A stretch of 64,000 nt of DNA from Chlamydiota bacterium (lineage in GTDB: Bacteria; Chlamydiota; Chlamydiia; Chlamydiales; Parachlamydiaceae): assembly GCA_013288825.1 (NCBI GenBank), contig JABDBC010000002.1, positions 1-64,000 on the forward strand, read 5' to 3'. A program made the position numbers and the translations under genes. Positions within the stretch are counted from its first letter, which is position 1. Every line of letters starts with the position of its first letter. Under the pieces are notes generated by a model. The model saw nothing but the letters and a program-made list of their open reading frames with translations, was not told where the DNA came from and ran no database searches. This document shows, in pieces, positions 40,528 to 64,000 of this stretch.

Positions 40528-40665
40528 AGGACAAAGGACAAGGGACCTAAAGGACATAAAGGACGTAAAGGACAAGGGACCTAAAGGACAATAAGTCATC
40601 TCTCATCGTCCTTTATGTCCCTTGTCCTTTACGTCCTTTATGTCCTTTAGGTCCCTTGTCCTTTT
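40525..40665. repeat. GGAC 9-bp repeat hairpin, copy 7
   Basis: AAAGGACAAAGGACAAGGGACC... and its inverse ending TTGTCCTTTTC. It fills the gap between dnaN and recF. Confidence 0.92.
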
Positions 40666-44781: not shown

Positions 44782-45060
44782 ATGGATGGAAAGGACAAAG
44801 GACAGAAAGGACATAAAGGACGTAAAGGACAAAGGACGTAAAGGACATAAAGGACGTAAAGGACATAAAGGACGTAAAGGACATAAGGGACGTAAAGGAC
44901 ATAAAGGACGTAAAGGACAAAGGACGTAAAGGACAAAGGACGTAAAGGACATAAGGGACATAAAGAACGATGCTTTGTCCCTTATGTCCTTTACGTCCCT
45001 TATGTCCTTTACGTCCTTTATGTCCTTTACGTCCTTTGTCCTTTATGTCCTTTCTTTCCA
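44782..45060. repeat. GGAC 9-bp repeat hairpin, copy 8 (longest)
   Basis: ATGGAAAGGACAAAGGACAG... followed by about 16 GGACRTAAA-type units up to about 44970, then the inverse ending CTTTCCAT. At about 280 bp it is the largest copy; unit number differs between the arms. It lies between the divergent clpB and giant-protein genes, and the rest of the gap (45061-45173) is AT-rich leader. Confidence 0.92.
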
Positions 45061-45173
45061 TTACTGCTCATTTACTAAGTTAACTAAACTGAAATAAATT
45101 ATTTTTATGTTGACAAACCACATAGTTTAAACAGCTTAAGCAATATTTTCTAAAAAAATTCATATAAATGCTA

Positions 45174-45203
45174 TTGACATATCAACTTTAAACTAAATAT
45201 AAT
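45174..45203 (+). promoter_or_regulatory. Strong predicted promoter of the 2740-aa gene
   Basis: TTGACA (45174-45179), 18 bp and TATAAT (45198-45203): consensus boxes, 49 nt before the ATG. Confidence 0.72.
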
Positions 45204-45251: not shown

Positions 45252-48200
45252 ATGAGTATAGGTAGTGAACCACCAATACGGCCCGGAGGAGACCTCCCGG
45301 ATATAAAAAGAGATGACACAGTTCCGCCTTTAGGAACTCCAGCTGCTGGAGCAGGCGCGCCTACCACATCTGAAGAAAAAACAGCCCTTGCCGCTTCACA
45401 ACGACCAACAACCACAGCTCCTTCCATTCACATTCCTTTCACAGCCAAAGCAACCTTAATCATAGGAAGCGCATGGAGGGCTGGTCTCAGACTTTTCCCA
45501 AAAAAAGAAAAAACTCAACTGACACAGACCATGGAAAAAATCATGAATTTAATTAATGCTCCAGCACCTGGGAAAGGCAAAGCAAAAACCGCAGCAGCAG
45601 GTACAACCACCGCCGACCTCCACTTACTGTCCCCCGCAGACAAAAAAGCCTTACTCGATTTAGTTGCCGAAATGCAAAAAGACATGTCTGAACTCGAAAA
45701 AACAGTGAGCGAAACAAGCATCACCGATGTCATGAAAAAATCAATCACATTAGGAAAACCCACTTTTATTTCTTATGCCGAAATTGGTGCGCATTATAAA
45801 ACTCGTTTAGAACGACTGGCTCAGCAAAAAGAAGAAAAAGCAATAGAAGCAAAGGGTAAAGCAGAAGAAGAGGGAAAACCACTGATTGGAAGAATACGCC
45901 CAGGAGCAAGTGCTTTAACACTTAAAACGTTAAGCAAAGACATTGGCGCCATCCTTGACAAGAATCTTAAAGCTTTAGACGACAAGGGTGATAAAGATGT
46001 TCGAGAATGCAAAGCTCTTGCTGCCAATATTTTAAAACAACTAAAAAAGACCAGAATCATAGAAGATAGATCAACACAAAAAACCAAGCGTGAAGATTCA
46101 ATGGCTATTACTGCAGCCTTACAAGGTGCCATTAAAGATAGGGATCTTCTAATGAGCAAACTCCGACGTCTAAAACATTCAAATCCTAAAAAACATCAAG
46201 AAATTGTCGAGAAAATCTATGTTCCCTTGAATAAAGAATTAAGCGACGCGAGGTTGCAAAGAGAGATATTAAGCATCGCCCAAACAGCAGTAGTACATTT
46301 ATTTGAAGAGACGAAAGAATACGGTAAGACTGGTGGTGCGAAGCGTTTAGAAAAGATGAGAGGTGAGGCGACTTTACTTATGACCGATCCAGAACTTATG
46401 AAAAAGCTAAAGGATAAGGAATTTAAGATAAGCCACGAGACTGAAATTGTAGTTACTCACACTGCCTCAGATATCAAAGAAGATATAACGGGCATTCGAG
46501 GCCTTACCGCAGAATATGGCCATCTCACAGCCAATCTACTCGAAATGTTCCGGGAGAGCGATGACATCGCTAATCCTGAAGAATTCGTAGCATGTAAAGA
46601 GCTCGCTAAAGAAGTCTGTGAAAATCTTGCTGCAGCTGCAAAAGCCAAGTCCAGAGGAACCGACTTCAGCGAACTTGCTCTTAAATCTCGCGAAGGCTTC
46701 CTCCGCTTACAAACAAAAATCGATGTTCTTAAAAAAGCAACACAGCTAAAACCTCCTTCCGCTTATGACAAAATGGTCTACGATCGCGTCATGAAAGAGA
46801 TCTACCAGCCCCTTGAAAAGACACTTCTTGCTTTCCACAAAGGGTCTGTCCACGACCCCGAAACTCTAATAAAAATGTCATTCCTTCCTCTCACCAGCAA
46901 TGAACGGGAACTATACAGAAGCCTTTTGAGCACGAGCACAAGGGGCGGCGTCGAAAGAGTTATATATCGGCCTCAAGGCTTTTTTGACAAACTTCTTCGT
47001 AGAGAACCTCCTGCTGCCCTTCGTGAGCCAACAAAACTATTCAACTCACTTCTAGCAGATGCATTGACGAGATTCGATACACGATCGGCTTTTCGCGAGC
47101 TCGGAAAGGTACACCGTCTCGAAACGAGACTGGGACTTGCAGGAGTACGGCTTGCACATCTAGATAAACCGGTAGCTCTAACTTACCATGACAAATACGC
47201 CGATATCGCCGAAGCTTCAAGCCATGTCTCCACTGTCTATGACGTCTCTAAAGACTTCTCACGCACTCCCCCTTCAAAAAAAGTTTTAGAGGCGGGCCCT
47301 CTCGATGTCTTTACTGAAGAAACTGCATTAACCCGCGCATTGCGCCTGACTCCCCATTCAAAAGAAATTGCAGAAGGCCTTGGATGGACCCCGACTCCAC
47401 TTGCGGCTGCACGTCTGATAAAAAGCAAAATGGCTTTAGAAAGGCTTTTGGTAAGGCTGCAGGCAAGAAAAGAGAAGTTGGATGAGCAGTTGGAGAACAG
47501 CGGAACAGTACCTTTGGATGAGATGTTTTACAGCGATTATGCGATGGTGGCCCATGCCGTTAAGCAAACAGGAGGTGCTCTCAAAGAAATTGACATAGCA
47601 GAAAGTAGAGCAACACGAACTCTTGAGGACGCGCTTAAATTGACTAAGGAAGACGAGGCTATGATTGAAGCAGGCATAAAACGTCCTGCTGATTATGGTG
47701 ATACAATAACAGTCGAAAGATATCAAACCGCCATACAGAAATTAGCAGCTGAAAGCTCTTTAGGCAATGTAGAAAGCAGAGAACGGCTGAAACAATTGAT
47801 TACATCTTTAGAAAGAAACTGTCCGAATTTACTACGTCGCATAAAAGAACATCGACCTACAGTAGAAGTGACACTGCAATACCCATCAGGCCCCTTCAAA
47901 CAGCCAATAACAATTGATCCTCGCATCTCAGAAATCATTGCAAAAGCCAAGGAAGTAACTGAGGGTCCTGTTGTGGACCATCTCAAATTTGTGACATTAG
48001 AACTAATTGACACTCACGGGAAATTGCGAGAGCTTTATGAAGATAAAAATGCGGCACACAATGTAGTAGGGGATCGAGAAAAGATAGTAAAGGCGTACCA
48101 GGCAGGCAACATAGACTCTGTCAAAACACTTGTAAAAGCACATTTGCTTGTAAGAGAGGGTATTTACCAAGAAGACCTCTTTCTAAGAGAAATGAGGCAA

Positions 48201-51200
48201 GATCCTGATGCCAGCCGAGCCATTGATGAAGCGCTGGACATGCTAAGACGTGAAGTTACCGAGCCTGTTGCGAGGACTAATGTCCAGATCGCCAGAGCAT
48301 TTATGGACCTTGCCAACAAATGTGAATCGCAAATCAGTAACGCAGTACGACAAATTGCAAGCTTTGATAAGCAGGTAGTTACTAAAGCTGCGACGCGAGA
48401 ACAATTAGAAACTCGACGAGAACTTGTTCTTATGGCAGAAGATGGACTCAAACAATTGGAAGAAATTGCTGCAAATTCCGCTGAGACACCTGAAGGAAAA
48501 GAATTTCGTGCTGCTGTAATGGCAAAATATAACTTGCAGTTGCAAGCTTTTGAACGGGTTCAATTTGGGGCTATTAGGACTCCAATACAAGCTCAATCTT
48601 ATATAGACCTTGTTAATTCATTTGAATCACAAGTCAAAGATTCACTAGAGCAAGTTAATATACTTGATGAGCAGATAGCCGCTAAGACAGCAACTCCAAA
48701 TCAGATCTCTGGTAGACCAGTCCTGCTTGGAGTCGCTTGGAAAGCGCTACAAAATCTGAAAGATACTGTTGCTCAGTTACCTATTGAGACCGCTACGGGA
48801 CAAGGGCTCTATTCTGCAATCATGAGAAAATATGCCACACAGTTGGAGGCATATAATAAAGTTCTCCATCCACCAGGACTACCGCAACCACAAGTCAGAA
48901 ATGATGCATTCTTTATAGCCGCACGTGAGGCCGCGGAGGGTTTGAGAACAGCTATAACAAATTTGGAAGGCGTGGGCCGATTTCATACTTCAGGGGTTGC
49001 TGCTCGATATATGTCTGATGCTGCAGTTACTCCAGATGAAATAGCGAAACATATTCACGGCATTAAAGCAGCTGGAAAGGTTTTAGAAGCAGAGATAATG
49101 CGCTTAGAAGAGGAGCTGCCAAAAACAAACCTATCAGACAGGGCTGCAGCCCTAAAGGAACTTGAAGGATTACGAGCTGAGTTTCGTACGATAACAGAAC
49201 GACACAATAAATATATCGATATTGCCTATCCCATCGATAGAGGTCTGTTGCGAAGAGTCGAAAGCGCCAAAACTCCGGGAGACTTTGCACGGCTAAGTGT
49301 GGAATTCGAGACCAAAGACATGCTAAAAGAAATCGTTGGTCAACTTGCAGCACGTGCGAGCACCTATTTATCAGCGGAAAGTCGATCAGAGGCGGCGTTC
49401 AGAGCAGCACTATTCCTGAACAGAGTGCAAATTATACTCCCTGTTAATGACCTTGCTGACATAGAAAAAGCAGTAAAAGGAATTACAAGTGAGTATAGGC
49501 CATCTCTATCACATAATGAAACAGCAATGGTCAGGGATCTGAATCAACAAGCACTTCAAGCGACTATGACGGGTACATTAACACCTGAAGCACTCGATGC
49601 CTTTAATACTAGAGATGCTAAACTGGTACAAAAATATAGAGACCTATTCATCAAACTATATGCTAACGCCAGAACCGAAGCAGAGCAAAAGCAATTTATA
49701 AATCTAACCTTCTACTTACAGACAAATCACCCCACGTTTTTAGCAAAAATGCTTGAAGATCCCCTTCTTAGTTCCATGCTTGCCAAAGGTCTAAATAAAG
49801 AGGGTGAAGAACTAAATTTAACAACAAGGCAGATAGCGGTTTTTGTCAACTTACAGCGCGCTATCGTTGACCGCGGGCTTACTCTGCAAAACGTAGATGT
49901 TCCTGATTCATTAGAACAAGCAATCAAACATCTTACCGTATTGGAAAAATTATCTATTGACAAGCCTACCACTGAAAATCTGGAAGCCTACAAGCAAATG
50001 TCCCAACTTTATTACGAATTAAACCGTCGGCACGGCTTAACAGATCTGTCGACAACCCATGTCGAAATTCTACAGATTTTGCGAAATTCTCCTGATGAAG
50101 GAACACACTTTGCGACAACGAAAATTATGGCGTTGCCTGGTGGACAAGAGGCACTTGTCAACTTAGAAAAAATATTAGCAGCCCGTGTGAGGGCTCCAGC
50201 TACCTTTGAGGAGAGAATTGCAAATCTGACAGATTTAAAGAGATTATATCAAGCTTATCCAAAACTCCTTCCAAAGCTTCCAGAATTTCCAGTTACAAAA
50301 ATTCATCCTGCAAATGCTGCAATTTTGGCTGCCATTGAAGTACAAACAGACCGGTCACCAAAAACTGTTGGTGAAGCTTTTGCTACAACCATGCGAACAA
50401 GGGTGGATGCGTCACTTGCAGAAAAGTTAAAGAGCGACAGAGAGTTTCTTGATCACCTCAATAATGTTTATTTACATCACCCAGATCTAATTGAGGTTTA
50501 CGAAAAAGGATATGGGACAGAAATAAATTTAAGGTTAGTACAAATCGGTACCGATTCCTCTTCACCTCTTAGTATCTTGGCTCGACAAGTAGCGATTCGA
50601 AGACAAATGAATGTAGCATTAAAAACCAATGCTTTTACTCCAGTTTTCATCGAAGAAATCCAACGACAATTTACACGGCTTCGAGAAGAGGAAGCGAAAG
50701 CAATGGTATCTGCCGCGGCAGCAATGACAACAACAGGAACGAGCCTCGCAAGACCTGCTCCTGCTGAACTCTTTGCAACATCAACTGACCTTCTTGAGGA
50801 GACCTTTACCCGAGAGCTCGAACGTACTGATCAATGGACTTTAAAACCTCTAGACACAAGAGTTTTAGCCAATATCAAAGCCAATCTCGCTGTTGTTAGA
50901 GAGTTGACAGATCGAATAAAGTACGGAGACAAATCACCAAAAACAGCAAATGAATTACAAAAAGCACAAAGAAAGGCAGCTGATTATCTGAAATCGAATG
51001 AGCAAAATGTCGCGAACTTGCTCCATCTTTTTGAAAGTCGAGCCATGTATGGCTATAGCACACTAGCAGCTGGAGATGAACTTCGCTTAGGAGCAGACAT
51101 TCACGAGCTCACTGACCAATTGGATGCGGCTGATCGATTGGTGGGTGCAAAACAAAAATGGACTTCGAGGGAGGCTTTTAAAGGTGTGAAAGGTCTTCAT

Positions 51201-53474
51201 GAAGCGTTCATGAAGACTGTGAAAGACCTTGGGAAGACCCCTTTCACACTAGCTCTTGCGGCTGAGTTTACGTTACGTGAAATGGAAGCTCCTTTCTTGA
51301 GACTCTGCGAGAAAACGCAAATAGACCCGATTGATCCAAAGCTCTCGCCAAAAGAACTCATGGAGACAGAACGCATCTGGCGAACCCTAAATGAAATACA
51401 AGTCAAGCTGCAAGCTGCAATGAAAATCAGTGAAGAAAATGACCCACACTTACCATACTTAGAAGCGGCTCAAGCCCGGATAGATCAATGGAGAGCTAAG
51501 CTCCCCATGGAATTCCGCTATCGGGATCATGGTACAGCTGCAGTTGCAGCCCGTGCTGCTGCTACAACGGAACCAAAACTAGAAGACTCCGGCGAATCAA
51601 AGCGAATGGGCTCAGAAGTAGATTCTAAACGAGGAGAAGAAAGAGTATCAGGGTTAGGATTGGGAGAAACGGCATTGCGTAACTTAAACTATTCGGCAAT
51701 AGTTGAAGCAAGGTCCAATCGTCGACTTTTAGATAATCACTTGGTAGAGCTGAGTAGAACTGATGACTCGGATCAAATAACACTTTTGATGAGTTCAATC
51801 GAAACTGATAAACAAACGATCAGAGAGGAGATGACACGCCTAAGCAGGGAAGGATTTAATATCGAACCTTACCGTCAAATTGTTGGATTTGACGAAGACG
51901 GCAATCGATACGGCTCTGAACCCTTTACTACCGATGCTCAAGCATTCGAACTAGAAGGTCCGGAAACTCCAAGGGAAGTTCCTCCAACTGAGCCCCGTGG
52001 AACAGAAACTGCTCCATCCACTTCGTCATCGTCATCGTCAAGCGCTCCTTCAGCGACTGCGGCTGCTACATCGCCACCGTTGCCTACGCAGCCGCCAGTA
52101 ACTGCAATGGCGCCACCTCGGATGCCAGGTACAGTCCATAGGCCGACCTCAGAGCCGGCAAGCGAATTTGAAAGAAAAACAAAAGGGAAGCCGGAATTAA
52201 CCCCTGGACTTGGTCTCGAACCCGCGAGAGCCGCTCCGACAAGAGCATCCGCTGTGCTTTCATTTAGACCTGGATCCCCAGCACAGATGACCGAATATTA
52301 TAATAAGACTATTCTAGAAACAAACACAAACCCCGACATCATACCCAAACGAATACTGGATTTAGAAAAAATGAGAACTAGTTATGGCGAAACTGCTGAC
52401 GAATCAATGATAGCTATATTACAACAAACAATCGATACTCTGAAAGCAAAGAAAAAGAAGCTGGAAAGTAGTTTAATACCAACTGCAGAAGTACATAAGG
52501 CTGAGTTTGACGCCAAAATAAAGGCTATCAGTATTGAGAAGGATGGAAAAATGCAAGCTGATCTCAGGACAGCCTATAAACAACAAAGACAACAGGTCCT
52601 GGAAGATCTGAGGCGCATTGGCGCAGCAGGATTTAATATACAACCGAGCCTTGAAATTCTTGGATTTGATTTAGAGGGCAACGCTATAGGCGAAACTAAG
52701 GAGGCTCGAGAAGGACAATTAATAAAAGCAGCACAATCCGTCAAGGCTTGGACGGATTGGTTTGTCGCAAATAGCGGTCGGGCAGATGAGAAAGAGCTAG
52801 AAGAACGAACAAGAGAATTTGAAGCCCTGAAACAAAACGCTTTAGCGGAACTGAATTTCTACCATGAAATGGGATTTGATGTAATCCCAAGCCTCAATAT
52901 TCTCGGATTTGATTTAGAGGGCAACACTCTTGTTAGGGCGCCAACTTCTCCTCCTACAACAGCTCCTTCGACAGCTGACGCCGCCACAGAAGCGGCAGCA
53001 CGAGCCATCGATGAAAAGAACTGGCCTAAAATTGAAGCGAACATCAAAGCCAACCCGAATTTAATACCCACTGCCATCAGATCTTTTAAGGAATTTCTAT
53101 CCTCTGGAGCCTCAGAAGCAAGTGCAATGGCCACCCAATGGGGAATCGCTCGTCTGGAAGCAATGAAAACGGCCGAAGAGCAACGCCTTAAAGTATGGGC
53201 AACTACGCAAAAAGCTAGCATGGATGAGATATTAGCGCGTATTACCAGGTCACCAGCTGGACAAGACAAAACTGATGCTTCGAATGAATATCTGGACCTA
53301 AGGAATCAAACAAAAAGTGAGCTACAAAAAAAAGGTAGCGAAGGGTTTGATATTTCCCAAAGCGCAGCAATACTCGGACTTGTCAGCCGGGATTTAGGGC
53401 CGGAATTGGGTGGTGAAATTTTGATCTATGAGGCAGATATTACACCACCAGTTACGCCATACCAATCCACATGA
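45252..53474 (+). CDS. Giant helical repeat-containing protein, 2740 aa
   Basis: No known domain is recognised. AGGGG precedes ATG 45252. A Pro/Thr/Ala-rich N terminus (1-60) leads into about 2100 residues that look almost wholly helical, rich in Lys/Glu/Ala/Leu, without signal peptide or clear membrane segment. A tandem pair of repeats of about 95 residues lies near 1015-1200 (CESQISNAVRQIASFDKQV... / FESQVKDSLEQVNILDEQI...). A Pro/Ser/Thr/Ala linker is near 2240-2300. The C-terminal part holds four copies of a unit of about 65-70 residues ending GFNIxPSxxILGFDLEGN (near 2198, 2460, 2540 and 2700; the fourth is degenerate). The size and layout suggest a scaffold or secreted protein. Function unknown; the coding call is firm (one open frame, good codon use). 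Confidence 0.88.
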   Translation: MSIGSEPPIRPGGDLPDIKRDDTVPPLGTPAAGAGAPTTSEEKTALAASQRPTTTAPSIHIPFTAKATLIIGSAWRAGLRLFPKKEKTQLTQTMEKIMNLINAPAPGKGKAKTAAAGTTTADLHLLSPADKKALLDLVAEMQKDMSELEKTVSETSITDVMKKSITLGKPTFISYAEIGAHYKTRLERLAQQKEEKAIEAKGKAEEEGKPLIGRIRPGASALTLKTLSKDIGAILDKNLKALDDKGDKDVRECKALAANILKQLKKTRIIEDRSTQKTKREDSMAITAALQGAIKDRDLLMSKLRRLKHSNPKKHQEIVEKIYVPLNKELSDARLQREILSIAQTAVVHLFEETKEYGKTGGAKRLEKMRGEATLLMTDPELMKKLKDKEFKISHETEIVVTHTASDIKEDITGIRGLTAEYGHLTANLLEMFRESDDIANPEEFVACKELAKEVCENLAAAAKAKSRGTDFSELALKSREGFLRLQTKIDVLKKATQLKPPSAYDKMVYDRVMKEIYQPLEKTLLAFHKGSVHDPETLIKMSFLPLTSNERELYRSLLSTSTRGGVERVIYRPQGFFDKLLRREPPAALREPTKLFNSLLADALTRFDTRSAFRELGKVHRLETRLGLAGVRLAHLDKPVALTYHDKYADIAEASSHVSTVYDVSKDFSRTPPSKKVLEAGPLDVFTEETALTRALRLTPHSKEIAEGLGWTPTPLAAARLIKSKMALERLLVRLQARKEKLDEQLENSGTVPLDEMFYSDYAMVAHAVKQTGGALKEIDIAESRATRTLEDALKLTKEDEAMIEAGIKRPADYGDTITVERYQTAIQKLAAESSLGNVESRERLKQLITSLERNCPNLLRRIKEHRPTVEVTLQYPSGPFKQPITIDPRISEIIAKAKEVTEGPVVDHLKFVTLELIDTHGKLRELYEDKNAAHNVVGDREKIVKAYQAGNIDSVKTLVKAHLLVREGIYQEDLFLREMRQDPDASRAIDEALDMLRREVTEPVARTNVQIARAFMDLANKCESQISNAVRQIASFDKQVVTKAATREQLETRRELVLMAEDGLKQLEEIAANSAETPEGKEFRAAVMAKYNLQLQAFERVQFGAIRTPIQAQSYIDLVNSFESQVKDSLEQVNILDEQIAAKTATPNQISGRPVLLGVAWKALQNLKDTVAQLPIETATGQGLYSAIMRKYATQLEAYNKVLHPPGLPQPQVRNDAFFIAAREAAEGLRTAITNLEGVGRFHTSGVAARYMSDAAVTPDEIAKHIHGIKAAGKVLEAEIMRLEEELPKTNLSDRAAALKELEGLRAEFRTITERHNKYIDIAYPIDRGLLRRVESAKTPGDFARLSVEFETKDMLKEIVGQLAARASTYLSAESRSEAAFRAALFLNRVQIILPVNDLADIEKAVKGITSEYRPSLSHNETAMVRDLNQQALQATMTGTLTPEALDAFNTRDAKLVQKYRDLFIKLYANARTEAEQKQFINLTFYLQTNHPTFLAKMLEDPLLSSMLAKGLNKEGEELNLTTRQIAVFVNLQRAIVDRGLTLQNVDVPDSLEQAIKHLTVLEKLSIDKPTTENLEAYKQMSQLYYELNRRHGLTDLSTTHVEILQILRNSPDEGTHFATTKIMALPGGQEALVNLEKILAARVRAPATFEERIANLTDLKRLYQAYPKLLPKLPEFPVTKIHPANAAILAAIEVQTDRSPKTVGEAFATTMRTRVDASLAEKLKSDREFLDHLNNVYLHHPDLIEVYEKGYGTEINLRLVQIGTDSSSPLSILARQVAIRRQMNVALKTNAFTPVFIEEIQRQFTRLREEEAKAMVSAAAAMTTTGTSLARPAPAELFATSTDLLEETFTRELERTDQWTLKPLDTRVLANIKANLAVVRELTDRIKYGDKSPKTANELQKAQRKAADYLKSNEQNVANLLHLFESRAMYGYSTLAAGDELRLGADIHELTDQLDAADRLVGAKQKWTSREAFKGVKGLHEAFMKTVKDLGKTPFTLALAAEFTLREMEAPFLRLCEKTQIDPIDPKLSPKELMETERIWRTLNEIQVKLQAAMKISEENDPHLPYLEAAQARIDQWRAKLPMEFRYRDHGTAAVAARAAATTEPKLEDSGESKRMGSEVDSKRGEERVSGLGLGETALRNLNYSAIVEARSNRRLLDNHLVELSRTDDSDQITLLMSSIETDKQTIREEMTRLSREGFNIEPYRQIVGFDEDGNRYGSEPFTTDAQAFELEGPETPREVPPTEPRGTETAPSTSSSSSSSAPSATAAATSPPLPTQPPVTAMAPPRMPGTVHRPTSEPASEFERKTKGKPELTPGLGLEPARAAPTRASAVLSFRPGSPAQMTEYYNKTILETNTNPDIIPKRILDLEKMRTSYGETADESMIAILQQTIDTLKAKKKKLESSLIPTAEVHKAEFDAKIKAISIEKDGKMQADLRTAYKQQRQQVLEDLRRIGAAGFNIQPSLEILGFDLEGNAIGETKEAREGQLIKAAQSVKAWTDWFVANSGRADEKELEERTREFEALKQNALAELNFYHEMGFDVIPSLNILGFDLEGNTLVRAPTSPPTTAPSTADAATEAAARAIDEKNWPKIEANIKANPNLIPTAIRSFKEFLSSGASEASAMATQWGIARLEAMKTAEEQRLKVWATTQKASMDEILARITRSPAGQDKTDASNEYLDLRNQTKSELQKKGSEGFDISQSAAILGLVSRDLGPELGGEILIYEADITPPVTPYQST

Positions 53475-53592
53475 TATCTCACGCGTTAGGGATGATAAAT
53501 TCGCTATCGAAAACAGAGAACGAATAATGCTAGAAGAAATTGCGAGAATGAAAGCTCAAGGATTCAAACTAGACGACGTGGTGTTTCCATAG
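53475..53592 (+). pseudogene. Frameshifted C-terminal remnant of the 2740-aa gene
   Basis: In another frame (codons from 53470, stop TAG 53590-53592) the DNA just after the stop encodes DISRVRDDKFAIENRERIMLEEIARMKAQGFKLDDVVFP. This has the same shape as the C-terminal repeat of the giant protein (DKQTIREEMTRLSREGFNIEP...). The simplest reading is that an indel near 53400-53470 cut off a fifth repeat. A natural end by drift or a sequencing error are alternatives. Confidence 0.55.
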
Positions 53593-53597
53593 CGCTG

Positions 53598-53845
53598 GTG
53601 CCGGCCCTCCGGGACGGAATGGTTTTTTAGTGTACCCAGGCTTCGCTAACCCCTCCGGGGAGCTTCAGCCTGGGCTATTACGTAAACAGACCCTCCGGGC
53701 TGTATGCAGGAGCTTTTGTCTGAGAATCACTTTTCACATTGCCCGGAGGGCTGTTTACGTAATAGCCCAGGCTGAAGCTCCCCGGAGGGGTTAGCGAAGC
53801 CTGGGTTAGCGCCACACAACACACCCCGTCCCGGAGGGCCGGCAC
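53598..53845. repeat. CCGGCCCTCCGGGAC inverted repeat, copy 4
   Basis: GTGCCGGCCCTCCGGGACGGAATGG is mirrored at 53825-53845. The centre (about 53700-53735) is shared with copy 5, unlike the other copies. It begins 5 nt after the relic stop codon. Confidence 0.93.
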
Positions 53846-53956
53846 TCTTGGAAAATTGGGGTCTGGCTTGTGATTTGTAATTTGAGGTGGAACAGAGGTT
53901 CTACGAAAAAGAGGCCTCAAATTGCAAATCGCATGCCTGAACCCAATTTTCCAAGA
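53846..53956. repeat. Spacer palindrome CTTGGAAAATTGGG, first copy
   Basis: TCTTGGAAAATTGGG...GGCTTGTGATTTGTAATTTGAG and the partial inverse CTCAAATTGCAAATCGCATGCC...CCCAATTTTCCAAGA. It links copies 4 and 5 of the CCGG element and is duplicated at 54206-54311. A third, inverted and shorter relative is at 54409-54494. Confidence 0.85.
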
Positions 53957-54205
53957 GTGCCGGCCCTCCGGGGCGGGATGGTTTTTTTAGTGTACCCAGG
54001 CTTCGCTAACCCCTCCGGGGAGCTTCAGCCCGGGCTATTACGTGAACAGACCCTCCGGGCTGTATGCAGGAGCTTTTGTCTGAGAATCACTTTTCACACT
54101 GCCCGGAGGGCTGTTTACGTAATAGCCCAGGCTGAAGCTCCCCGGAGGGGTTAGCAAAGCCTGGGTTAGCACCACACGACATACCCCGTCCCGGAGGGCC
54201 GGCAC
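53957..54205. repeat. CCGGCCCTCCGGGAC inverted repeat, copy 5
   Basis: Almost identical to copy 4, including its centre (AGGAGCTTTTGTCTGAGAATC). Together with the spacer palindrome this makes a direct duplication with a period of about 359 bp (53598-53956 and 53957-54311). Confidence 0.93.
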
Positions 54206-54619: not shown

Positions 54620-57600
54620 ATGGCATCAGGTACATCAGGACTCCCATCTTTTTTTCATGAAGGCCCCCATCTAACCCCACTTACTCCTTTACCTCCACCT
54701 GCCGAAACAGCCGTCAGCCCCCCAGCAGCCCCTCCTTCCTCTCCTCCAGTCATCGTGGTTGCAACAGCTGTCGCTGCAGTCGCCACTGCACCCATCGCAC
54801 AAGCAGCACGCATTTCAATAGAAACACAAAAAACAATTAATCAATTGATGCAGCATGAGTTTGCAAAAACTAAGCCAAAATATTCTCTCCAACAACGGTT
54901 TACACGGTGGCTTTATAACGAAAGGGCCCTCAATGCCGTTGAGAAATGGAGCGAAAAACGTAAGATTTTCGTCAAAAATCAGTTAGATATCATACGCAAT
55001 ACTTCGAAATTAACATTGGAACGGCTGAATGCCGCCACAAAAAAAGGTATGGCCCTCGCCGGACTGACGGACCGTTATGGAAATCCAAGCGTCCTCGAAA
55101 AAATCACTTTAAATGATGAAAAAGGGATTACACAAACTCTACAACGAGAATTTGCGGATGTCACAAAAGTTGCTGAAGAAACAGAAGCAAAATTGGCCCA
55201 TCTCGCTCAATTGATGGAAGGTAATTCACAACTCATCGGCATCTTTGGAAAGCAACGAGAAGAACTTGCAGATAATGTCATTAAACTTAGAGAAAATATC
55301 GCAAAGGCAAAGACTGTATATGAAACCGAGCTTGAAGAAACTAAGAAGAAGGAATTAAGCATACGATACCCGAATATGCCCGACGAAAAAGGTGATAAAA
55401 TACCCGACAAAAAAGGTATTAAACGTGCGGCTAAAGAAGCTTTAGCCACACCTCCAATCACACCTAGGCTCTCAGAAAAAGAAGAAACATTCTTGCGAGA
55501 TTTAGTAGATGGAAAAATAAGCGTCAAATCACAACTTAACACACTTGGCGATATCAATGCTTTCAGAAAACTTATTAGAACGCTTGGACATCAAGCATTT
55601 ACTCGAGAAAATACAAAAGCAAAAGAACGGTTTGTCATTTTAATGATGACCCTCAAATCAATTGATCCGCAACGTATTACTTCTATTTTAGACACTAAGG
55701 ACCATATCGTTAAATGGCGTATTGAACAAGCGACTTATAGTATACCTGATGTCTGGTATGATCTTATTGCTCGCGAACCAAGGGAGAGAGATCTAGATCA
55801 AATTACACCTAATAAAAATATTGTCCCTTCGGCTCTCAAAGGGCAATTTCGACTAGTAATAACTCAAAAATGCGAAGATGCAATCCAGAATGGACATCCC
55901 CATGTTGCCAGCCAAATTAAAGCTCTCGCAAAGTCCCCTCGATTCAGACACATGATCGGAAGCATTCTGGCCGAACCTGAATTTAGTAAGATGCTACAAG
56001 ATGTCGCAAATATCAAGAAATTAAGACCAGAACCAGTGGCAGTAGCTCCAGAACAACCAGTACATATTGAATTAACACGCGTAACAACTGGTGTGGAAAC
56101 CAAACCTGTCACAGCTGAAGAACTACGTGTTGAATTAAAACTCGAAACAGCTGGCGCTGCAAGCGTCGCTGCAGCTGTAGTTGTCCCCGTTCCAGAAACT
56201 GGAGCCCCACCTCCTCCAGTTGGTACAGCAACGGGTGTCGGAGGGGCAGGAGCAGGGATCGCGCCTCCATCAGTTGGTGCAGCTGTTGTTCCAAAAGTTG
56301 GAGCAAGACCTGAAGCAGCTCCGGCACGTGCAGAAGCTAGACCTCTACACGTGGATGTTACTGTAGTCCGAGCTACAGAAATCAATGCATTGTGCAAAAG
56401 ACTTTTAGTTGCCAAGACTGATTATGAAACTGCATATAGTAAAATCCCAATGGATAAAGATAAGGCTTCTGCAAATCTTAGACTCATGAAGAGATTACGA
56501 CATGATCTTATTAGTCTTATCACCCCAACGGTTGCTATACGAGAAAGTGCAATAGAAAAAGCCACGGATAACAAACTCTCAAAGGAACAAGAAGAAATAT
56601 ACGCTGGGGATATCGAAAATGAAAGAAAATATTTCTATTTGGAATATGAAAAAAATGCAAAAACTGAAGCTAGTAAGCCTGCGGGAGGCAATCCGATTTA
56701 CTCCGAGATATTACAATTCCTCAAAACTGATCTGGCAACAGTTGATAAAATCTTAGAACATTATACTCCAAAAGCCCCAGCTACAACTACTGTTGCAGCA
56801 GCAGCGGCTACGAGAGTCAAATATAAACCGTTGAGTGATCCTAAGCAATCCCCCGAACGCAGAGCCTTTGAAGACATCTTAAGGCAACCTGAATTTGACA
56901 TTTCAATTCCAGTTGGAATTCCTCCAGCTTCCGTAACCGAAGCGCTAAGCAATGATCCCCAAATAAAACGCCTCCTCCTATTGCTTAGCTGGAATATGTT
57001 CCGCCAAGGTGTCAAACGCAACTACGAAGACTACAGCATTCCAAAGCCTCCAGGAAATGAACCTACTGAAGTAGAACGCAATCTCGGAATGGCAAGCATT
57101 CTGGAAGAACTGCAATCACGCCTTTCTACAGGAGATCACGCAGGTAAAGGGATTAGAATTCAAGTTAGGTTCACTCCCACTGAAGATACTGCCTTTAAAC
57201 AGGCTCGAGGAATTGTTGAAAACCGCAGCACCTATAAATTCTCGGTAGCAAGGCCTGATGAAGTAATCGCAGAACCATCGGTTATGCTCAATGTCCTCGC
57301 AAAGCTTCTTGACGAAGAGCTGCAAGCAGTAAAGCCTTTAACGGCAAAACCACCAACAGCGCTCGGTGCTGCAGAAAGAGAAAGCAAGCGTGGAAAAGTT
57401 GAGGCCCCCGAAGAGAAACTCGAACAAGCCAGAGTTACTTTTGAGGCTGTTGATTTTGCTCTAAAATTGAAAAAGCACAGTCCAGAACTGTGGAGCGAAA
57501 TGATGCAAAAAGATAAATCCTTGTTCTCAATGTTAGAAGATGTTTGTAATCAAATGTTAGACCGTGGATCCACGGAAGACAGATTGAAAGCCCATAAATT

Positions 57601-60600
57601 TTTGATGTCGATGTATCTTTCCGAAGGAGCGAAACTCTCCGTTCTTGGTCAAGCAAATACACTCACTCGAAAGGCTATAAAACAACAATCTCTTGCCTTA
57701 GAGACCCTTCGTACACGACCACCTGCAGAGTACTTACGAGAGTCTTCTGAAATGAATCAAGAGGTACTTGATATTGGAACTCGATATCAATTATGGCATT
57801 TCTCACCCTCTCAGGAGCGTGTACTTAATCAAATAAAGAACACAGATCCTAGTGATCCGATACAAGTTGAAATGTTAGGCATCTTTCTTAATAGTAATAC
57901 TCGTGATTTTGAATCATTGGAGGACCTAATCAACTTCCGTGTATCTGCCGGTCTAGGAAATTGGGAAGATCGATTGATTCAGGATAAACTCGAAGCTATG
58001 CGTAGTGAGTTGCAGCCGCTTCTTTCCGGTAGTCATGCGGAAGCGCCTAAAGGTCCACAAACGGAAGGCCAAATCAAGGGAGCTGATTTTCTCTATTACG
58101 AGAAACAGAAACGAAAACAGGCAGATGAGGAGGACATAAATTTAGAAGCCATTAGAGTGGCTCAATTTGTTCGTAGAAATAACCCTAGAGCCTTCGAAAA
58201 CCGAAGAACAGCAGGAGGAACACATCCTGTTGAAGAACCATTGGGGATATTAATAGGTCATGGGACTTTTTTTGGTCGCGCTGCCGGGTGGACTTACAAA
58301 GCTCTAGATGCAATGGACAAGGCTATAGCACAACATAATAGAGATCCCAATGCTGATATTTCACCGCTTCTAGCAGAAACTCTTCTAGCTTTCAGCCAAG
58401 TAAACCACCTTAGGACGTTTCCTACATATGAAGAACAAATGAAAGCAAAAAATTCCGCTGAAGCGTTTAAAGAATTAGTACAGGACATTGAAAACCTTGA
58501 GAATACCATCAATGTGGCTGTGGCTCAACATGGACTGGGGAGGCTTTCAATAGAACAGCAGGAACTATTTGCAAAATGCAAAGATGAAAAACTTGGTACA
58601 ATCCGAGATTTGAGTAAAGTGACTGCCCTAAAAAATTCCTCAGTACCAGTGATTAAAATCTTGAACACACTGAAAACAGGTGTCTTGCTTGGGATATATA
58701 ATGAACCACCAGAGCTACTCACTGCGGTGTTAGCTGATATTCGCCAGTTAGAAGACAAAGCTATTGCGTGGAAAGGACGAATAATAACAGACGCCCAAGG
58801 AGCTGGAATAGGACTCAGATTTCAAGAGTTCTTGAAGGAAAATCAAAAGGTTGCCAACAGTGCATATCTTGAAATTTTCATGAGAGAAAATCAACCCCTA
58901 GTACGAAGATACCAGACAAATCCACAATCTTTGAAACCAAGCGAGATAGCTCAACTTAGAGCCCTCCCTGAAAGATTGGTCACAGGAGCAGCAGCAGTCT
59001 TACAGGCTGAAGACTTTGGAGGTCTTCCTATCACGATGCCAACGGCTACTCCAAAAGACTTCAATAATATTACTCAAGATGCTGCACAACGAAAAGAAAA
59101 GTGGTTGCAAGAACTGGAGATATTACTATATTCCTCAAAAGAACTTAAAGAGATGTCTGAAGCAGAAAAACGCTTTAGTGCACATCAAGATCTCTTATCT
59201 GCATTAGCTAAACCTCCTACACTAGAAGAACGAGATAAATTGTCTACAAAAGCCCGGGAAGAACTGGAAAAAATTGAAGCTTCGGCGAGGGACTATGTCA
59301 CTCCTACAGCAGCATCTCTTCCTCTGGCCAGCACTATTGCACAACCCACTGAAAATGTAGCTGTGACATTTAACATTCTTGAGCGTCTATTGATAAGTGA
59401 TCTTTCGTCAGTCACAAGAACCCTTTCAGCTCCTTCTGTGCCCAAAGAGACGGCAGTCGCACCTACAAGAGAAGATGAGCTGAAAGCTGCTGTTATATTA
59501 GAAGACAAAGAGCAAGATGAGGAACTCGCAAAACTATCAGTGACTTCTGACGGAATTAAGTTTGCTCGATATTTACAGAAGGCCCATCCAAAGCTGTGGG
59601 AACAACTGACCAAGAAACATCCAGAAATTTATAGCTTATTAGATAAAACGGGTAATTTTGTCAAACAAATGGATCCTTCAAAAACTCCTGGCGTCAGAGA
59701 GTTCACCATTTTCACAAATCTCGAAAGAGCTATTCGCAACCATACCATTGGACGACTCGATTCTCATACAAGAGAAGCTCTTACTGCCCTGGAAATTAAA
59801 ATTCAAAATCTTTCACAAAATGAACGCGTTAATGACCCAAGCTATCAAGAGGCAATGGAAATTATTAACTACAATCGATTGTTGCATTTGAATCCAAAAC
59901 AGTTAGCCCTTCAGGATCGTCTTGTGGCAATAGTTAACATTGGTGACGTAGGACGCCGGGAAGCACAACTGCTACGATTTGACGAATCAGAGAAAGCTGA
60001 GTTGAGGGCAATGCGAGAAATTCTTGAGCAAAGAAAACGACTACCCCTGGGCTGGAATCCTGCGGAAATCGAGTTGCAATTTAATGCAGTAAATTTCGCA
60101 GTTGAGGAGTTGAGTAGGATCAACAAAACAAGATTAGGGCAAATACATACATCATTAACTGATGCAGGAATAGGTGTTGGAGTTGATGTTAAAGTTGAAA
60201 GGGAGACCAAAGGCGAGATTGCTGCTCACGTAGGTGTTAGTGATGCAAAGAGAACAGCAGAGGTAATGGCACAAAAGCCCAGATCTCTAACCGACGATCA
60301 GCTTCTCGGTATACTTGCTAGTAGAGCAAACATACAAGGGCCTGCCACTCCTAAAACGATTGACTATATTGAAGCTGCGTTATCTTTTGGAAATCGACAA
60401 GATTTCAGCGAAGATGTAGCTATTTATCAAAATATTAGAAAAAACAAAATCATTGCGGAGCAAGCCGAAAGATTAGTAGATGGTGCAGATAGCGAGAGTC
60501 ATCCGGCTTATGCAGCTGCCGGAGCTGCCTATTTGGCTTTAAGTGCTCTGGATAACGCCATAGAAGCAAATAACCGCAATCCTAACAATAATACTAATAA

Positions 60601-63600
60601 ACAGCTTTTATTGGATTTTATCAGAAAGACAGACAAAGCACATTTAATAATTAACAAGCCTGCAGTTCAGAAAGATTTACCATCACTAGCAACAAATCTA
60701 CCTCATATAAAAACGGTCGTTACAAACTTTGATGCATTTGTTTGGGAACAGATAGCACAAAGCCGCCTGGGACGCCTTACGCCTGAGCAAGATCAGCTGT
60801 TACAGCAGTGTCTTGCCCCCGGTCAGCTACGAGAAATAAAAGGTCTAAAACCAGCGCAAGTGATCGAACTTATAGAGGCGATGCAACTTGCAGTATTGTT
60901 GGGAACATACGATCGACAGCCAGTACTGTTAACCTCCATCATGGCAGATATCTCTCAATTACAATCCAAACTCGGCAGTTTGTTAACTCCAGCAGCCCTT
61001 AGCAAATATTATTCTGAAGAAGGCTCTGTTCAACAAGAATACTTTACTATTATGACCTTTAGAGCAGATCTGAAGGCTAATGCCGACATGGAACTAGCGA
61101 TGCGCGAGCTGCAACCTAAAATGCAAAGATATTTGAAAAGCTTCGGGGCAACTCCAATTCAAGAACTCCAAGAACTTGAGAAAGCTTTGAATGCAATGAA
61201 TCGCCTTCCCATAGTTGGGAAGGCTGCATTAGCCAGACGAGCAGTATGGATGCAGCACCTATCTAAGATTCGAAAGGAGATTACTGAACAATCCGGTGCA
61301 CCAAAAGTAGCTCCGAAAGCCACCGAAGCAGAGCTTGCTCCCATTACAGAAAAACTCAACTCATTACTCACAATGTCTGATAAAGAATTCTCCAAACTGG
61401 GGGTAAATTTATCGGAAGTATTACTGCAAGACAAGGACATAGAATATTGGGGCAATGATGAGTTAGCGAGGAACGCAAGATTGGTTAATATAAGATACTA
61501 TACAAGATTCATGACATCAGACCCGGCACAGGTGATGCCTTATTACAGAGCCGCAATGGTGGAATTGGGAAAAATTCCTAAAGGATCTTTAAGCGCACAA
61601 GATTATGCGCAATTAAGACAAGAAGTGCAAATATACAGACTTGAAGCCACTGCAAAACTCATGCAAAAGGGCATCGATTCTGAGTTAGAAAAACAACCAA
61701 AACAAAGACTTGCAACTTGGACTGAAAGCGAAATTAGAGAACTTGGCGACCCCAAATTGATTGAGCAAGCCGTTCAACAAAATGAGTCGTTACTATTGCA
61801 AAGAATGATGAAAGATCCGACTAATCGGGACATTACAAACGAATTAATATTACTTTACAGAAAATTTCGAGCAAAAGAATCTGATCAATTGATTGAAGAT
61901 CTTAAAGAAACAGTTGAAGAAGCGATTAAAGTTCAAAAGGAAGAAATGCAGCCCATTGCACGAAACGCAGACAGTGCTTTATTTGCTGAACTTTCAGAAC
62001 ATCCGGAACGAATTGATGAGATTATTCTTGATCTTGAACAGAATTGGGAGCAATTTTCTCCCCCTGAAGGTGATCCTAAAGCAATAATAGCTCAACTCAG
62101 AAAACAGGCCGCTGATGCAATTGCAAAAACACAAGGCGACAGCAAAAGAGGAGGAGGCCCAACAGCTCCTTCAGGAGCTGCTGCAGCTACTTCTGCGGCC
62201 GCAGCTGCTGCAGTACCAGCCACGTTAACAACTCAACTAGAATATCTAAGAAAAAACCTTCAGAATACCGAAACCCTTAAAAAGAACTTCACAAATGTGT
62301 TTATAGCATTAACAGAGGCTATCAATTTATGGGATAAACTTACACCAGGAACACAGAAAAACGGAGTCAAAACTGAATTAATTGGATTCATCGACACATA
62401 CATTGAACATTCCACCCTCGATGTACGAGATGCGATAAGAAGCAATCTGTTTCTCCTTCTTCCTCTGATAAAAATAGCACCAGATCGCATCGAAGCTATG
62501 AATAAGAAAGACAATATCGAACGGGAACAAATATTGATACAATATGGAACATTATTACAGATACTTGTTAACTTAAAATCTCTACAAGCCCAAAGCCGCG
62601 CCTTCGTACTTGCCCCCCCTGTACGAGAAAACCCCTTTGAAAGCCCGATAAAGGCACAACAGGCGCTATTGAGAAGTCAAGCCCTCATAACTCAGCCCTA
62701 TAGTGCACAATTCGGACTTGACGATGAATTGAATCAGATTCTATCAACTCAATCGTTAGTAATGCATCCCGAACCGCTGCTCATATTCAGCGATACTACA
62801 GTAAGTGATATTCACGCATTAATAAAATCTGGGACCCCAGGAAGCTTAAGCCATGCAGAGTTTCAAATTACTCATACTTTAATGGATGATAAGTTAAGGA
62901 AGGAGCTTTCGGAGAAGCTGATTGAAGCAAAACTTGAGATGCATGAGAGAATCTTTTTTAACTTAGATAGATTTGAGCTTTTGTTCGCACAAGCTTACCA
63001 AGCTCCCACTATAGATGAAGGCCTCTTGACAAAACTTATCGAGATAGCAAGGAGTATTCCAGAGCCACATATAACGCTACGTAACATTAACACTCGATTA
63101 GAATCGATAATCCACAAATATAGATCACAACCTCCAACAACTCCGCAACCACCAACAGGCCGCGGCACACCGCCACCACCACCTCCTCCTCCACCGCTCC
63201 CAACAGGCAGCCCCGGCACATCAGGCCCCCCCACAACTACAACAACAACTGCCACAGCAGCATCTCGTGTAGCTACGCAACCCCCGCTTCCTGGACTACC
63301 TTCGGTACCAGGATTGATAAAATCTACAAAAGATCAAGGTCTTTTTATAGATATCACTCAAACAAAGGCCGATAAGGCATTCTCCATATTGAAACAATGC
63401 GTTCAAATATGGGATAGAACTAGCAATGTAACAGAAAAAGCAGCAATCGCAGCACAAATAGAGGGATTTATCTCTTCGTTGAATTTCCAACCTTACTTAC
63501 GCGATCAGATGAGGTCTGATCCAATCCTCATGTCTCAATTGCTTCAAATTCAACCAAATCTACAAATACTGATGACGAAGGCCGATAATACGGAACGCGA

Positions 63601-64000
63601 GGTAGCCCTTAGGGGATATAGACTCTATTTAACTTTTTCCGCTGATGCGATAGATGCCATAGCAGAACCATATCGATCACAATTTAGGGCTGATGAGATT
63701 GAAGTAAAGTACGGAGCAAGAGATCTTCAACGATCATCTTTTGTTGACACAACGACTGCAAAACATAAGGCTATCTTCAGTCAATTGGATGAATTTGAGG
63801 AGGCTTTTGCAAGGGGCTGCAAGGCGTCAACACCTGACCAGAGCGTATTAGATACACTCAATCGGACCTACAGCTCTCTAGGGGCTGTTGCAAAACAACG
63901 CAATCTCATGGGCAGACGTGAATTTATAATAAAAAAATTCAATGCGATGAGCGCAACAACAACCACACCATCTACGGGCGAAGCTCCACCACCTCCGCTT
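54620..64000 (+). CDS. Giant helical repeat-containing protein, at least 3127 aa (3' end outside window)
   Basis: From ATG 54620 (AGAGG 6 nt upstream) the frame stays open to the last base: 3127 codons with no stop, checked by reading it through. It opens with a Pro-rich stretch (residues 9-45) and a hydrophobic segment VIVVATAVAAVATAPIAQAA (about 45-65). The rest is mostly helical and Lys/Glu/Ala/Leu-rich. Ala/Pro/Gly low-complexity linkers occur near 520-570, 2515-2535, 2835-2890 (PPPPPPPPPLP) and at the window end. Internal duplications are visible. GRLS-EQQELF...GVLLGIYNEPPELLTAVLADIRQLEDK (near 1305-1380) matches GRLTPEQDQLL...AVLLGTYDRQPVLLTSIMADISQLQSK (near 2050-2120). A later unit near 2550-2660 recurs near 2910-3010. 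No known domain is recognised. It lies directly downstream of the other giant gene. Confidence 0.9.
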   Translation, partial: MASGTSGLPSFFHEGPHLTPLTPLPPPAETAVSPPAAPPSSPPVIVVATAVAAVATAPIAQAARISIETQKTINQLMQHEFAKTKPKYSLQQRFTRWLYNERALNAVEKWSEKRKIFVKNQLDIIRNTSKLTLERLNAATKKGMALAGLTDRYGNPSVLEKITLNDEKGITQTLQREFADVTKVAEETEAKLAHLAQLMEGNSQLIGIFGKQREELADNVIKLRENIAKAKTVYETELEETKKKELSIRYPNMPDEKGDKIPDKKGIKRAAKEALATPPITPRLSEKEETFLRDLVDGKISVKSQLNTLGDINAFRKLIRTLGHQAFTRENTKAKERFVILMMTLKSIDPQRITSILDTKDHIVKWRIEQATYSIPDVWYDLIAREPRERDLDQITPNKNIVPSALKGQFRLVITQKCEDAIQNGHPHVASQIKALAKSPRFRHMIGSILAEPEFSKMLQDVANIKKLRPEPVAVAPEQPVHIELTRVTTGVETKPVTAEELRVELKLETAGAASVAAAVVVPVPETGAPPPPVGTATGVGGAGAGIAPPSVGAAVVPKVGARPEAAPARAEARPLHVDVTVVRATEINALCKRLLVAKTDYETAYSKIPMDKDKASANLRLMKRLRHDLISLITPTVAIRESAIEKATDNKLSKEQEEIYAGDIENERKYFYLEYEKNAKTEASKPAGGNPIYSEILQFLKTDLATVDKILEHYTPKAPATTTVAAAAATRVKYKPLSDPKQSPERRAFEDILRQPEFDISIPVGIPPASVTEALSNDPQIKRLLLLLSWNMFRQGVKRNYEDYSIPKPPGNEPTEVERNLGMASILEELQSRLSTGDHAGKGIRIQVRFTPTEDTAFKQARGIVENRSTYKFSVARPDEVIAEPSVMLNVLAKLLDEELQAVKPLTAKPPTALGAAERESKRGKVEAPEEKLEQARVTFEAVDFALKLKKHSPELWSEMMQKDKSLFSMLEDVCNQMLDRGSTEDRLKAHKFLMSMYLSEGAKLSVLGQANTLTRKAIKQQSLALETLRTRPPAEYLRESSEMNQEVLDIGTRYQLWHFSPSQERVLNQIKNTDPSDPIQVEMLGIFLNSNTRDFESLEDLINFRVSAGLGNWEDRLIQDKLEAMRSELQPLLSGSHAEAPKGPQTEGQIKGADFLYYEKQKRKQADEEDINLEAIRVAQFVRRNNPRAFENRRTAGGTHPVEEPLGILIGHGTFFGRAAGWTYKALDAMDKAIAQHNRDPNADISPLLAETLLAFSQVNHLRTFPTYEEQMKAKNSAEAFKELVQDIENLENTINVAVAQHGLGRLSIEQQELFAKCKDEKLGTIRDLSKVTALKNSSVPVIKILNTLKTGVLLGIYNEPPELLTAVLADIRQLEDKAIAWKGRIITDAQGAGIGLRFQEFLKENQKVANSAYLEIFMRENQPLVRRYQTNPQSLKPSEIAQLRALPERLVTGAAAVLQAEDFGGLPITMPTATPKDFNNITQDAAQRKEKWLQELEILLYSSKELKEMSEAEKRFSAHQDLLSALAKPPTLEERDKLSTKAREELEKIEASARDYVTPTAASLPLASTIAQPTENVAVTFNILERLLISDLSSVTRTLSAPSVPKETAVAPTREDELKAAVILEDKEQDEELAKLSVTSDGIKFARYLQKAHPKLWEQLTKKHPEIYSLLDKTGNFVKQMDPSKTPGVREFTIFTNLERAIRNHTIGRLDSHTREALTALEIKIQNLSQNERVNDPSYQEAMEIINYNRLLHLNPKQLALQDRLVAIVNIGDVGRREAQLLRFDESEKAELRAMREILEQRKRLPLGWNPAEIELQFNAVNFAVEELSRINKTRLGQIHTSLTDAGIGVGVDVKVERETKGEIAAHVGVSDAKRTAEVMAQKPRSLTDDQLLGILASRANIQGPATPKTIDYIEAALSFGNRQDFSEDVAIYQNIRKNKIIAEQAERLVDGADSESHPAYAAAGAAYLALSALDNAIEANNRNPNNNTNKQLLLDFIRKTDKAHLIINKPAVQKDLPSLATNLPHIKTVVTNFDAFVWEQIAQSRLGRLTPEQDQLLQQCLAPGQLREIKGLKPAQVIELIEAMQLAVLLGTYDRQPVLLTSIMADISQLQSKLGSLLTPAALSKYYSEEGSVQQEYFTIMTFRADLKANADMELAMRELQPKMQRYLKSFGATPIQELQELEKALNAMNRLPIVGKAALARRAVWMQHLSKIRKEITEQSGAPKVAPKATEAELAPITEKLNSLLTMSDKEFSKLGVNLSEVLLQDKDIEYWGNDELARNARLVNIRYYTRFMTSDPAQVMPYYRAAMVELGKIPKGSLSAQDYAQLRQEVQIYRLEATAKLMQKGIDSELEKQPKQRLATWTESEIRELGDPKLIEQAVQQNESLLLQRMMKDPTNRDITNELILLYRKFRAKESDQLIEDLKETVEEAIKVQKEEMQPIARNADSALFAELSEHPERIDEIILDLEQNWEQFSPPEGDPKAIIAQLRKQAADAIAKTQGDSKRGGGPTAPSGAAAATSAAAAAAVPATLTTQLEYLRKNLQNTETLKKNFTNVFIALTEAINLWDKLTPGTQKNGVKTELIGFIDTYIEHSTLDVRDAIRSNLFLLLPLIKIAPDRIEAMNKKDNIEREQILIQYGTLLQILVNLKSLQAQSRAFVLAPPVRENPFESPIKAQQALLRSQALITQPYSAQFGLDDELNQILSTQSLVMHPEPLLIFSDTTVSDIHALIKSGTPGSLSHAEFQITHTLMDDKLRKELSEKLIEAKLEMHERIFFNLDRFELLFAQAYQAPTIDEGLLTKLIEIARSIPEPHITLRNINTRLESIIHKYRSQPPTTPQPPTGRGTPPPPPPPPPLPTGSPGTSGPPTTTTTTATAASRVATQPPLPGLPSVPGLIKSTKDQGLFIDITQTKADKAFSILKQCVQIWDRTSNVTEKAAIAAQIEGFISSLNFQPYLRDQMRSDPILMSQLLQIQPNLQILMTKADNTEREVALRGYRLYLTFSADAIDAIAEPYRSQFRADEIEVKYGARDLQRSSFVDTTTAKHKAIFSQLDEFEEAFARGCKASTPDQSVLDTLNRTYSSLGAVAKQRNLMGRREFIIKKFNAMSATTTTPSTGEAPPPPL

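What the first reader, a model, noticed from the sequence alone, without database searches (positions are those of the whole stretch)
45252..53474. 2740-residue orphan giant with a repeated GFNIxPSxxILGFDLEGN terminal unit
Four spaced copies of a 65-70 residue unit occur in the last 550 residues and a pair of 95-residue repeats in the middle. The unit ends in a conserved hydrophobic-glycine motif that I do not recognise. It has its own consensus promoter and sits upstream of a second giant gene.
Basis: partly seen in the sequence, partly recalled or inferred. Interest (0 to 1): 0.7.

Follow-up and report, generated by a model that had tools for sequence, protein, structure and literature searches.

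The report
Cluster of genome-unique giant chlamydial proteins
A 2,740-residue chlamydial protein carries four copies of a previously unseen helical repeat and turns out to be the first of at least five giant or large, repeat-built genes in a row, found in no other genome searched, which probably act as secreted scaffold proteins towards the host cell.

Summary
The ORF 45252-53474 (2740 aa) is exact. The four GF[ND][IV]xxSxxI[LV]G units (motifs at aa 2201, 2460, 2541, 2698) and the aa 1008-1103/1109-1204 repeat are far above chance (best internal score 103 against at most 70 in shuffles), and a perfect TTGACA-18-TATAAT lies upstream. No Pfam, NCBIfam, PHROG, PDB or plasmid match was found, and none in 232 Chlamydiota genomes. 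The unit is predicted confidently (pLDDT 84) as a three-helix bundle capped by the motif, with no significant structural relative. The interpretation needs correcting. The full unit is about 110-140 residues in copies 2 and 4, shorter in 1 and 3. The gene is not an isolated orphan: it opens a tandem cluster running off the window: g2 (6920 aa), g3 (873), g4 (2081), g5 (at least 328). g2-g5 share an N-terminal domain of about 320 residues; g2/g3 share a ~300-residue repeat. Giant 1 is linked weakly by two short modules. All are helical, nearly without membrane spans, with Ser/Thr/Pro/Gly-rich N-termini. Most likely they are a lineage-specific family of type-III-secreted, multivalent scaffold effectors (inferred, ~45%). 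Secretion and binding partners are untested.

The parts
45252..53474 (+). giant 1 (g1), 2740 aa
   Evidence: open frame, codon-position GC
45174..45203 (+). perfect sigma70/sigma66-type promoter, TTGACA-18-TATAAT, 49 bp before the ATG
   Evidence: 12/12 match; 1 in 3000 shuffles of the 300 nt upstream reaches 12/12. Function not tested
45252..45431 (+). aa 1-60: Ser/Thr/Pro/Gly/Ala-rich, probably disordered N-terminus (possible type III secretion signal)
   Evidence: low-complexity stretch aa 20-60; S+T+P+G of residues 2-31 is 0.50 against a median of 0.20 in 23 other window ORFs, one of which reaches 0.63
47703..47873 (+). aa 818-874: module shared with the C-terminal end of the cluster's N-domain
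   Evidence: g1-g5 BLASTP E 1.6e-4; N-domain HMM built without g1, 9.5 bits against a control maximum of 5.1; hhalign E 0.0028, probability only 11%
48273..48560 (+). middle repeat copy A, aa 1008-1103
   Evidence: z 24.5 to copy B
48576..48863 (+). middle repeat copy B, aa 1109-1204
49620..49982 (+). aa 1457-1577: second copy of the shared module (1457-1507) plus a stretch like a duplicated module of giant 2 (1483-1577)
   Evidence: 6.4 bits against controls of 5.1; 6.4 bits against controls of 3.2
51678..51941 (+). C-terminal unit copy 1 (short), aa 2143-2230, motif at 2201
51951..52163 (+). Ser/Thr/Pro/Ala-rich linker aa 2234-2304
52302..52721 (+). C-terminal unit copy 2 (full, about 140 aa), aa 2351-2490, motif at 2460; the copy that was folded
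52698..52961 (+). C-terminal unit copy 3 (short), aa 2483-2570, motif at 2541; starts at the tail of copy 2
53025..53456 (+). C-terminal unit copy 4 (full, diverged end), aa 2592-2735, motif at 2698
54620..64000 (+). giant 2 (g2), first 3127 of 6920 aa; continues to contig position 75382, followed by g3 (75543-78164), g4 (78765-85010) and g5 (85368 to contig end)
54773..55780 (+). shared N-domain in giant 2, aa 52-387
   Evidence: BLASTP to g4 E 3e-14; alignment A2; profile search
62237..63139 (+). first of 8 full or nearly full (plus partial) copies of a ~300-residue repeat in giant 2, also in g3

Best explanation
Giant 1 is the first gene of a lineage-specific tandem cluster of giant or large, helical, beads-on-a-string proteins in a Parachlamydiaceae-like chlamydia. 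Each starts with a short disordered Ser/Thr/Pro/Gly-rich stretch, and the largest ones (g1, g2) consist of duplicated helical modules joined by flexible linkers. The most likely mode of action is that the proteins leave the bacterium through the type III system by that N-terminal stretch and act in the inclusion or host cytosol as multivalent scaffolds: each repeat, in giant 1 a three-helix bundle capped by the GF[ND]IxPSxxILGFDxEGN turn, is a binding bead, and copy number sets valency and reach. Shown: gene, repeats, cluster, linkers, absence elsewhere. Predicted: unit fold. Inferred only: secretion, scaffolding, host target.
For: Repeats above chance. Unit predicted at pLDDT 84.4, pTM 0.71, as three helices with a motif cap. 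Downstream genes: N-domain pairs up to E 6e-67 (g3-g4); the ~300-residue repeat occurs in g2 in 8 full or nearly full copies plus partial ones and once in g3. Giant 1 linked by two weak modules. All five N-termini have S+T+P+G of 0.50-0.63 against a median of 0.20. Almost no hydrophobic segments; few Cys and Trp. g2 carries runs of 5-9 prolines, as in eukaryotic profilin/SH3/EVH1 ligands (established knowledge). The genome has an FHIPEP-family export protein. Large lineage-specific families of Parachlamydiaceae with protein-binding repeats carry working type III signals in a surrogate assay (PMC4209131).
Against: No eukaryotic-like or catalytic domain was recognised. Type III signals cannot be predicted reliably from composition, one other window ORF reaches the same value, and FHIPEP does not separate type III from flagellar export. 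A 6920-residue substrate would be very large for type III secretion. The link of giant 1 to g2-g5 rests on about 55-95 residues with low scores, and hhalign gives it 11% probability.
Confidence: 0.45

Rival explanations
1. An internal or periplasmic structural scaffold of the bacterium (cell-shape, spacer or inclusion-side fibre protein) that never enters the host.
For: Helical beads and linkers suit any spacer protein; no recognised secretion domain or host-like domain.
Against: Present in one species representative only, whereas cell-structure proteins are usually conserved; no N-terminal region hydrophobic enough for a Sec signal in g1, g3, g4, g5.
Confidence: 0.25
2. A polymorphic toxin or inter-bacterial/defence protein with a long repeat stalk.
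For: Giant size, repeats, variable gene neighbourhood beside clpB.
Against: No toxin, Rhs, CdiA-type or immunity match in Pfam, NCBIfam or PADLOC for giant 1; the two PADLOC matches of g3 are weak, partial matches (E 0.0006-0.004); obligate intracellular lifestyle makes inter-bacterial killing less likely (established knowledge).
Confidence: 0.1
3. Largely non-adaptive products of duplication and drift: genes that grow by tandem duplication in a repeat-rich genome and carry little function, as proposed in part for other large Parachlamydiaceae families (PMC4209131).
For: Single-genome restriction, diverged and shortened copies, possible decayed fifth copy after the stop, many intergenic palindromes.
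Against: Open frames of 2740 and 6920 codons and coding-type codon-position GC, a perfect promoter, and a conserved motif within diverged copies imply selection.
Confidence: 0.15

Closest known systems
LGR proteins of Protochlamydia amoebophila UWE25 (PMC2216083)
   Same: Six large paralogous genes in one chlamydial genome, no full-length homologue elsewhere, C-terminal repeats grown by adjacent duplication.
   Different: LGR repeats are 28-residue leucine-rich repeats; no leucine-rich repeat is recognised here and the units are ~110-140-residue and ~300-residue helical modules.
NEX/PEX expanded effector families of Parachlamydiaceae (PMC4209131)
   Same: Species-specific expansions, partly in tandem arrays, of proteins with interaction repeats; tested members carry a functional type III signal.
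   Different: Those carry F-box, BTB, RING/U-box, LRR or TPR domains; none reached a Pfam cut-off here.
Chlamydia TarP and other proline-rich actin-binding effectors (from general knowledge)
   Same: Proline tracts in giant 2 and repeats would suit cytoskeletal binding.
   Different: No sequence relation tested or found; giant 1 itself has no proline run of 5 or more.

Membership tests
LGR / leucine-rich-repeat family | 28-residue leucine-rich repeats in the C-terminal part | tested here: not met
   No LRR family in Pfam hmmscan of g1, g3, g4, g5 and both halves of g2; unit model is a three-helix bundle
NEX/PEX ubiquitin-related effector families | F-box, BTB, RING/U-box, TPR or LRR domains | tested here: not met
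   None above Pfam cut-off; one sub-threshold TPR_10 match, E 0.078
Type III secreted effectors | Functional N-terminal secretion signal and translocation | not testable with these tools
   Only composition is suggestive
Type III secreted effectors | Export apparatus present in the genome | tested here: inconclusive
   FHIPEP family on contig 56, E 2e-230; does not separate type III from flagellar export
The local cluster family (g2-g5) | ~320-residue N-terminal domain | tested here: inconclusive
   Giant 1 matches only the last ~55 positions of it, at aa 818-874 and 1457-1507, not at its N-terminus
Polymorphic / Rhs / contact-dependent toxins | Recognisable trafficking or toxin domain | tested here: not met
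   No match in Pfam, NCBIfam, PADLOC for giant 1

The most novel reading that the evidence does not exclude
A new class of chlamydial giant scaffold: a tandem cluster of at least five paralogous or mosaic genes spanning about 41 kb, one of them 6920 residues long, built from repeat domains unknown anywhere else and delivered to the host as multivalent binding chains.
Probability: 0.2. Interest if true: 0.75.

Novelty: new variant of a known kind. Interest (0 to 1): 0.5.

Why it matters
Large secreted repeat proteins are a main way in which amoeba-associated chlamydiae differ from one another. A cluster whose domains are absent from all profile libraries tested and from 231 other chlamydial genomes shows how quickly such families can arise, and it offers a compact, confidently predicted unit on which function can be tested. 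A 6920-residue protein in an intracellular bacterium would also raise the question of whether, and how, so large a protein is exported.

Tried and rejected
Full-protein and profile searches for relatives: genome contigs, same taxonomic family, phylum, plasmids, viral contigs: none; the few matches at E 0.001-0.1 in other genomes cover 40-110 residues and are about what chance gives over 232 genomes; one in G046 (E 1.1e-4, 57 positions) was not followed up. Unit against PDB by sequence (best E 0.26, galactonolactone dehydrogenase, rejected as chance) and by fold (SMAC/DIABLO Z 8.3, within the range usual for helical bundles, not interpreted). The unit as an alignment could not be used for the viral scan. 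Shared N-domain model: pLDDT 58, pTM 0.39, not used. Alignment of whole g3 with fragments misplaced rows, so it was not folded. GerD and ATP-synthase-b matches of giant 2 are below their cut-offs and look like coiled-coil resemblance. Giant 1 as the positional equivalent of genes beside clpB in relatives: neighbours there include ispG, a collagen-like gene and an unrelated 2090-aa giant; none is similar to g1-g5. A module HMM seeded with giant 1 is circular and is not used as evidence.

Full report
Observation. The reading frame at 45252-53474 is open for 2740 codons, with codon-position GC of 0.56/0.42/0.34. The four terminal motifs lie at aa 2201, 2460, 2541 and 2698. Copy-to-copy alignments score 42-99, with z up to 17.9; the weakest pair (copies 1 and 4) is still reached by only 6 of 500 shuffles. 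In a scan of the whole protein against itself the best score is 103, against 66 and 70 as the maxima of 60 global and 60 local shuffles. Most of the similarity sits in the last ~40 residues: without the motif only copies 2-4 and, weakly, 1-2 and 2-3 remain detectable. Copies 2 and 4 are full-length, matching over about 110 residues; copies 1 and 3 are shorter. The middle pair aa 1008-1103 / 1109-1204 is stronger still (z 24.5).

What the unit is. With the four copies as alignment, copy 2 folds with mean pLDDT 84.4 and pTM 0.71: helices at residues 2-28, 34-78 and 82-108, then the motif, whose PSLEILG forms a short helix and whose FDLEGNAI closes with a short beta bridge. The conserved Gly-Phe, Ile and Gly positions therefore form a cap on a three-helix bundle (inference from the model). 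Neither the sequence nor the fold has a significant known relative; helical bundles match many things at moderate scores, so this does not prove a new fold.

Surroundings. The window is the start of an 86-kb contig of a 2.6-Mb genome, 92% complete. The closest dnaN relatives are MAGs labelled Chlamydiae and Parachlamydiaceae. Upstream are dnaN (39328), a RecF-like SMC-type gene (40656) and, divergently, a ClpB/ClpC-type ATPase (42057-44696). Downstream, giant 2 does not end in the window: it is 6920 aa (54620-75382), followed on the same strand by g3 (873 aa), g4 (2081 aa) and g5 (at least 328 aa, cut by the contig end). g3, g4 and g5 start with a common domain of about 320 residues that is also found at aa 52-387 of giant 2 (BLASTP E 6e-67 to 4e-15 among g3, g4, g5 and 3e-14 for g2-g4; g2-g5 by profile only). 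Giant 2 carries 8 full or nearly full copies, plus partial ones, of a ~300-residue repeat that g3 has once, as well as further duplicated modules, separated by 16 Pro/Thr/Ala/Ser-rich stretches.

Is giant 1 part of this family? Partly. It lacks the N-domain at its N-terminus and the 300-residue repeat. It has a 45-residue BLASTP match to g5 (E 1.6e-4). The N-domain profile, built without giant 1, picks out aa 818-874 (9.5 bits) and 1457-1507 (6.4 bits), both above the best shuffled control (5.1), while hhalign gives the first of them E 0.0028 but a probability of only 11%. A duplicated module of giant 2 picks out aa 1483-1577 (6.4 bits, controls 3.2). I read this as a mosaic or anciently diverged member, with about 75% confidence.

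Distribution. No relative in 38 genomes of the same family, or in 232 genomes of the phylum with the unit, N-domain, 300-residue-repeat or giant 2 queries, apart from short marginal matches. In eleven relatives read beside clpB the neighbouring genes differ and none resembles the cluster; one of them (G037) has an unrelated 2090-aa gene there.

Mechanism. The five proteins have no strongly hydrophobic segment apart from an Ala/Val stretch near aa 44 of giant 2, few Cys and Trp, and Ser/Thr/Pro/Gly-rich N-termini (0.50-0.63 against a median of 0.20, with one other ORF at 0.63). Together with an FHIPEP export protein in the genome and the published type III signals of other lineage-specific Parachlamydiaceae families (PMC4209131), secretion into the host is the best-supported guess, and multivalent binding by repeated bundles the simplest use of the architecture. 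Both steps are inferred. Rivals are an internal structural scaffold, drift-driven gene growth, and a toxin.

Verdict. It resembles known kinds (LGR, NEX/PEX) in genome-specific expansion and repeat growth but shares none of their domains, so I class it as a new variant of a known kind, interest 0.5. Caveats: one genome, a draft assembly in 141 contigs, one unit model from four internal copies.

Noticed in passing
window 44788-45065; also 1112-1264, 3864-4034, 18883-19042, 22323-22452, 30752-30914, 34946-35089, 40520-40664: Tandem 9-bp units (AAAGGACAT/AAAGGACGT) followed by their reverse complement, forming long hairpins, mostly between genes. An exact 25-bp core occurs 25 times in this genome and also in two of 37 relatives (G002, G018), never in the backward control.
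   Followed up: partly
window 53598-54313: A 360-bp tandem duplication (96% identical) with large palindromes (CCCTCCGGG, AGGCTTCGCT) between giants 1 and 2; similar palindromes lie between g3 and g4.
   Followed up: no
window 53425-53589: Just after the giant 1 stop, another frame reads ERIMLEEIARMKAQGFKLDDVVFP, like the end of a decayed fifth unit. The score alone is not significant (E 2.5 over the contig), but it ranks third of 2467 segments, giant 1 itself being first.
   Followed up: partly
window 12052-13137 and 14395-16080: Two neighbouring genes with nearly identical N-termini (MTSGIG..LW..P..LFGH.DEEENLKKLQAGVDNTVQALL); the longer one has no Pfam match and an internal repeat.
   Followed up: no
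window 8277: The only other 12/12 consensus promoter of the contig, on the plus strand, 70 bp before the ORF at 8347.
   Followed up: no
L075:1690-10836 (G030): A 3049-aa gene with a DUF3638 match near clpB in a relative; unrelated by the searches made.
   Followed up: no
L014 (G046:C1:285533-285712): Strongest match of the N-domain profile outside the own genome (E 1.1e-4, 57 positions), in a 1.2-Mb genome of another family of the order.
   Followed up: no
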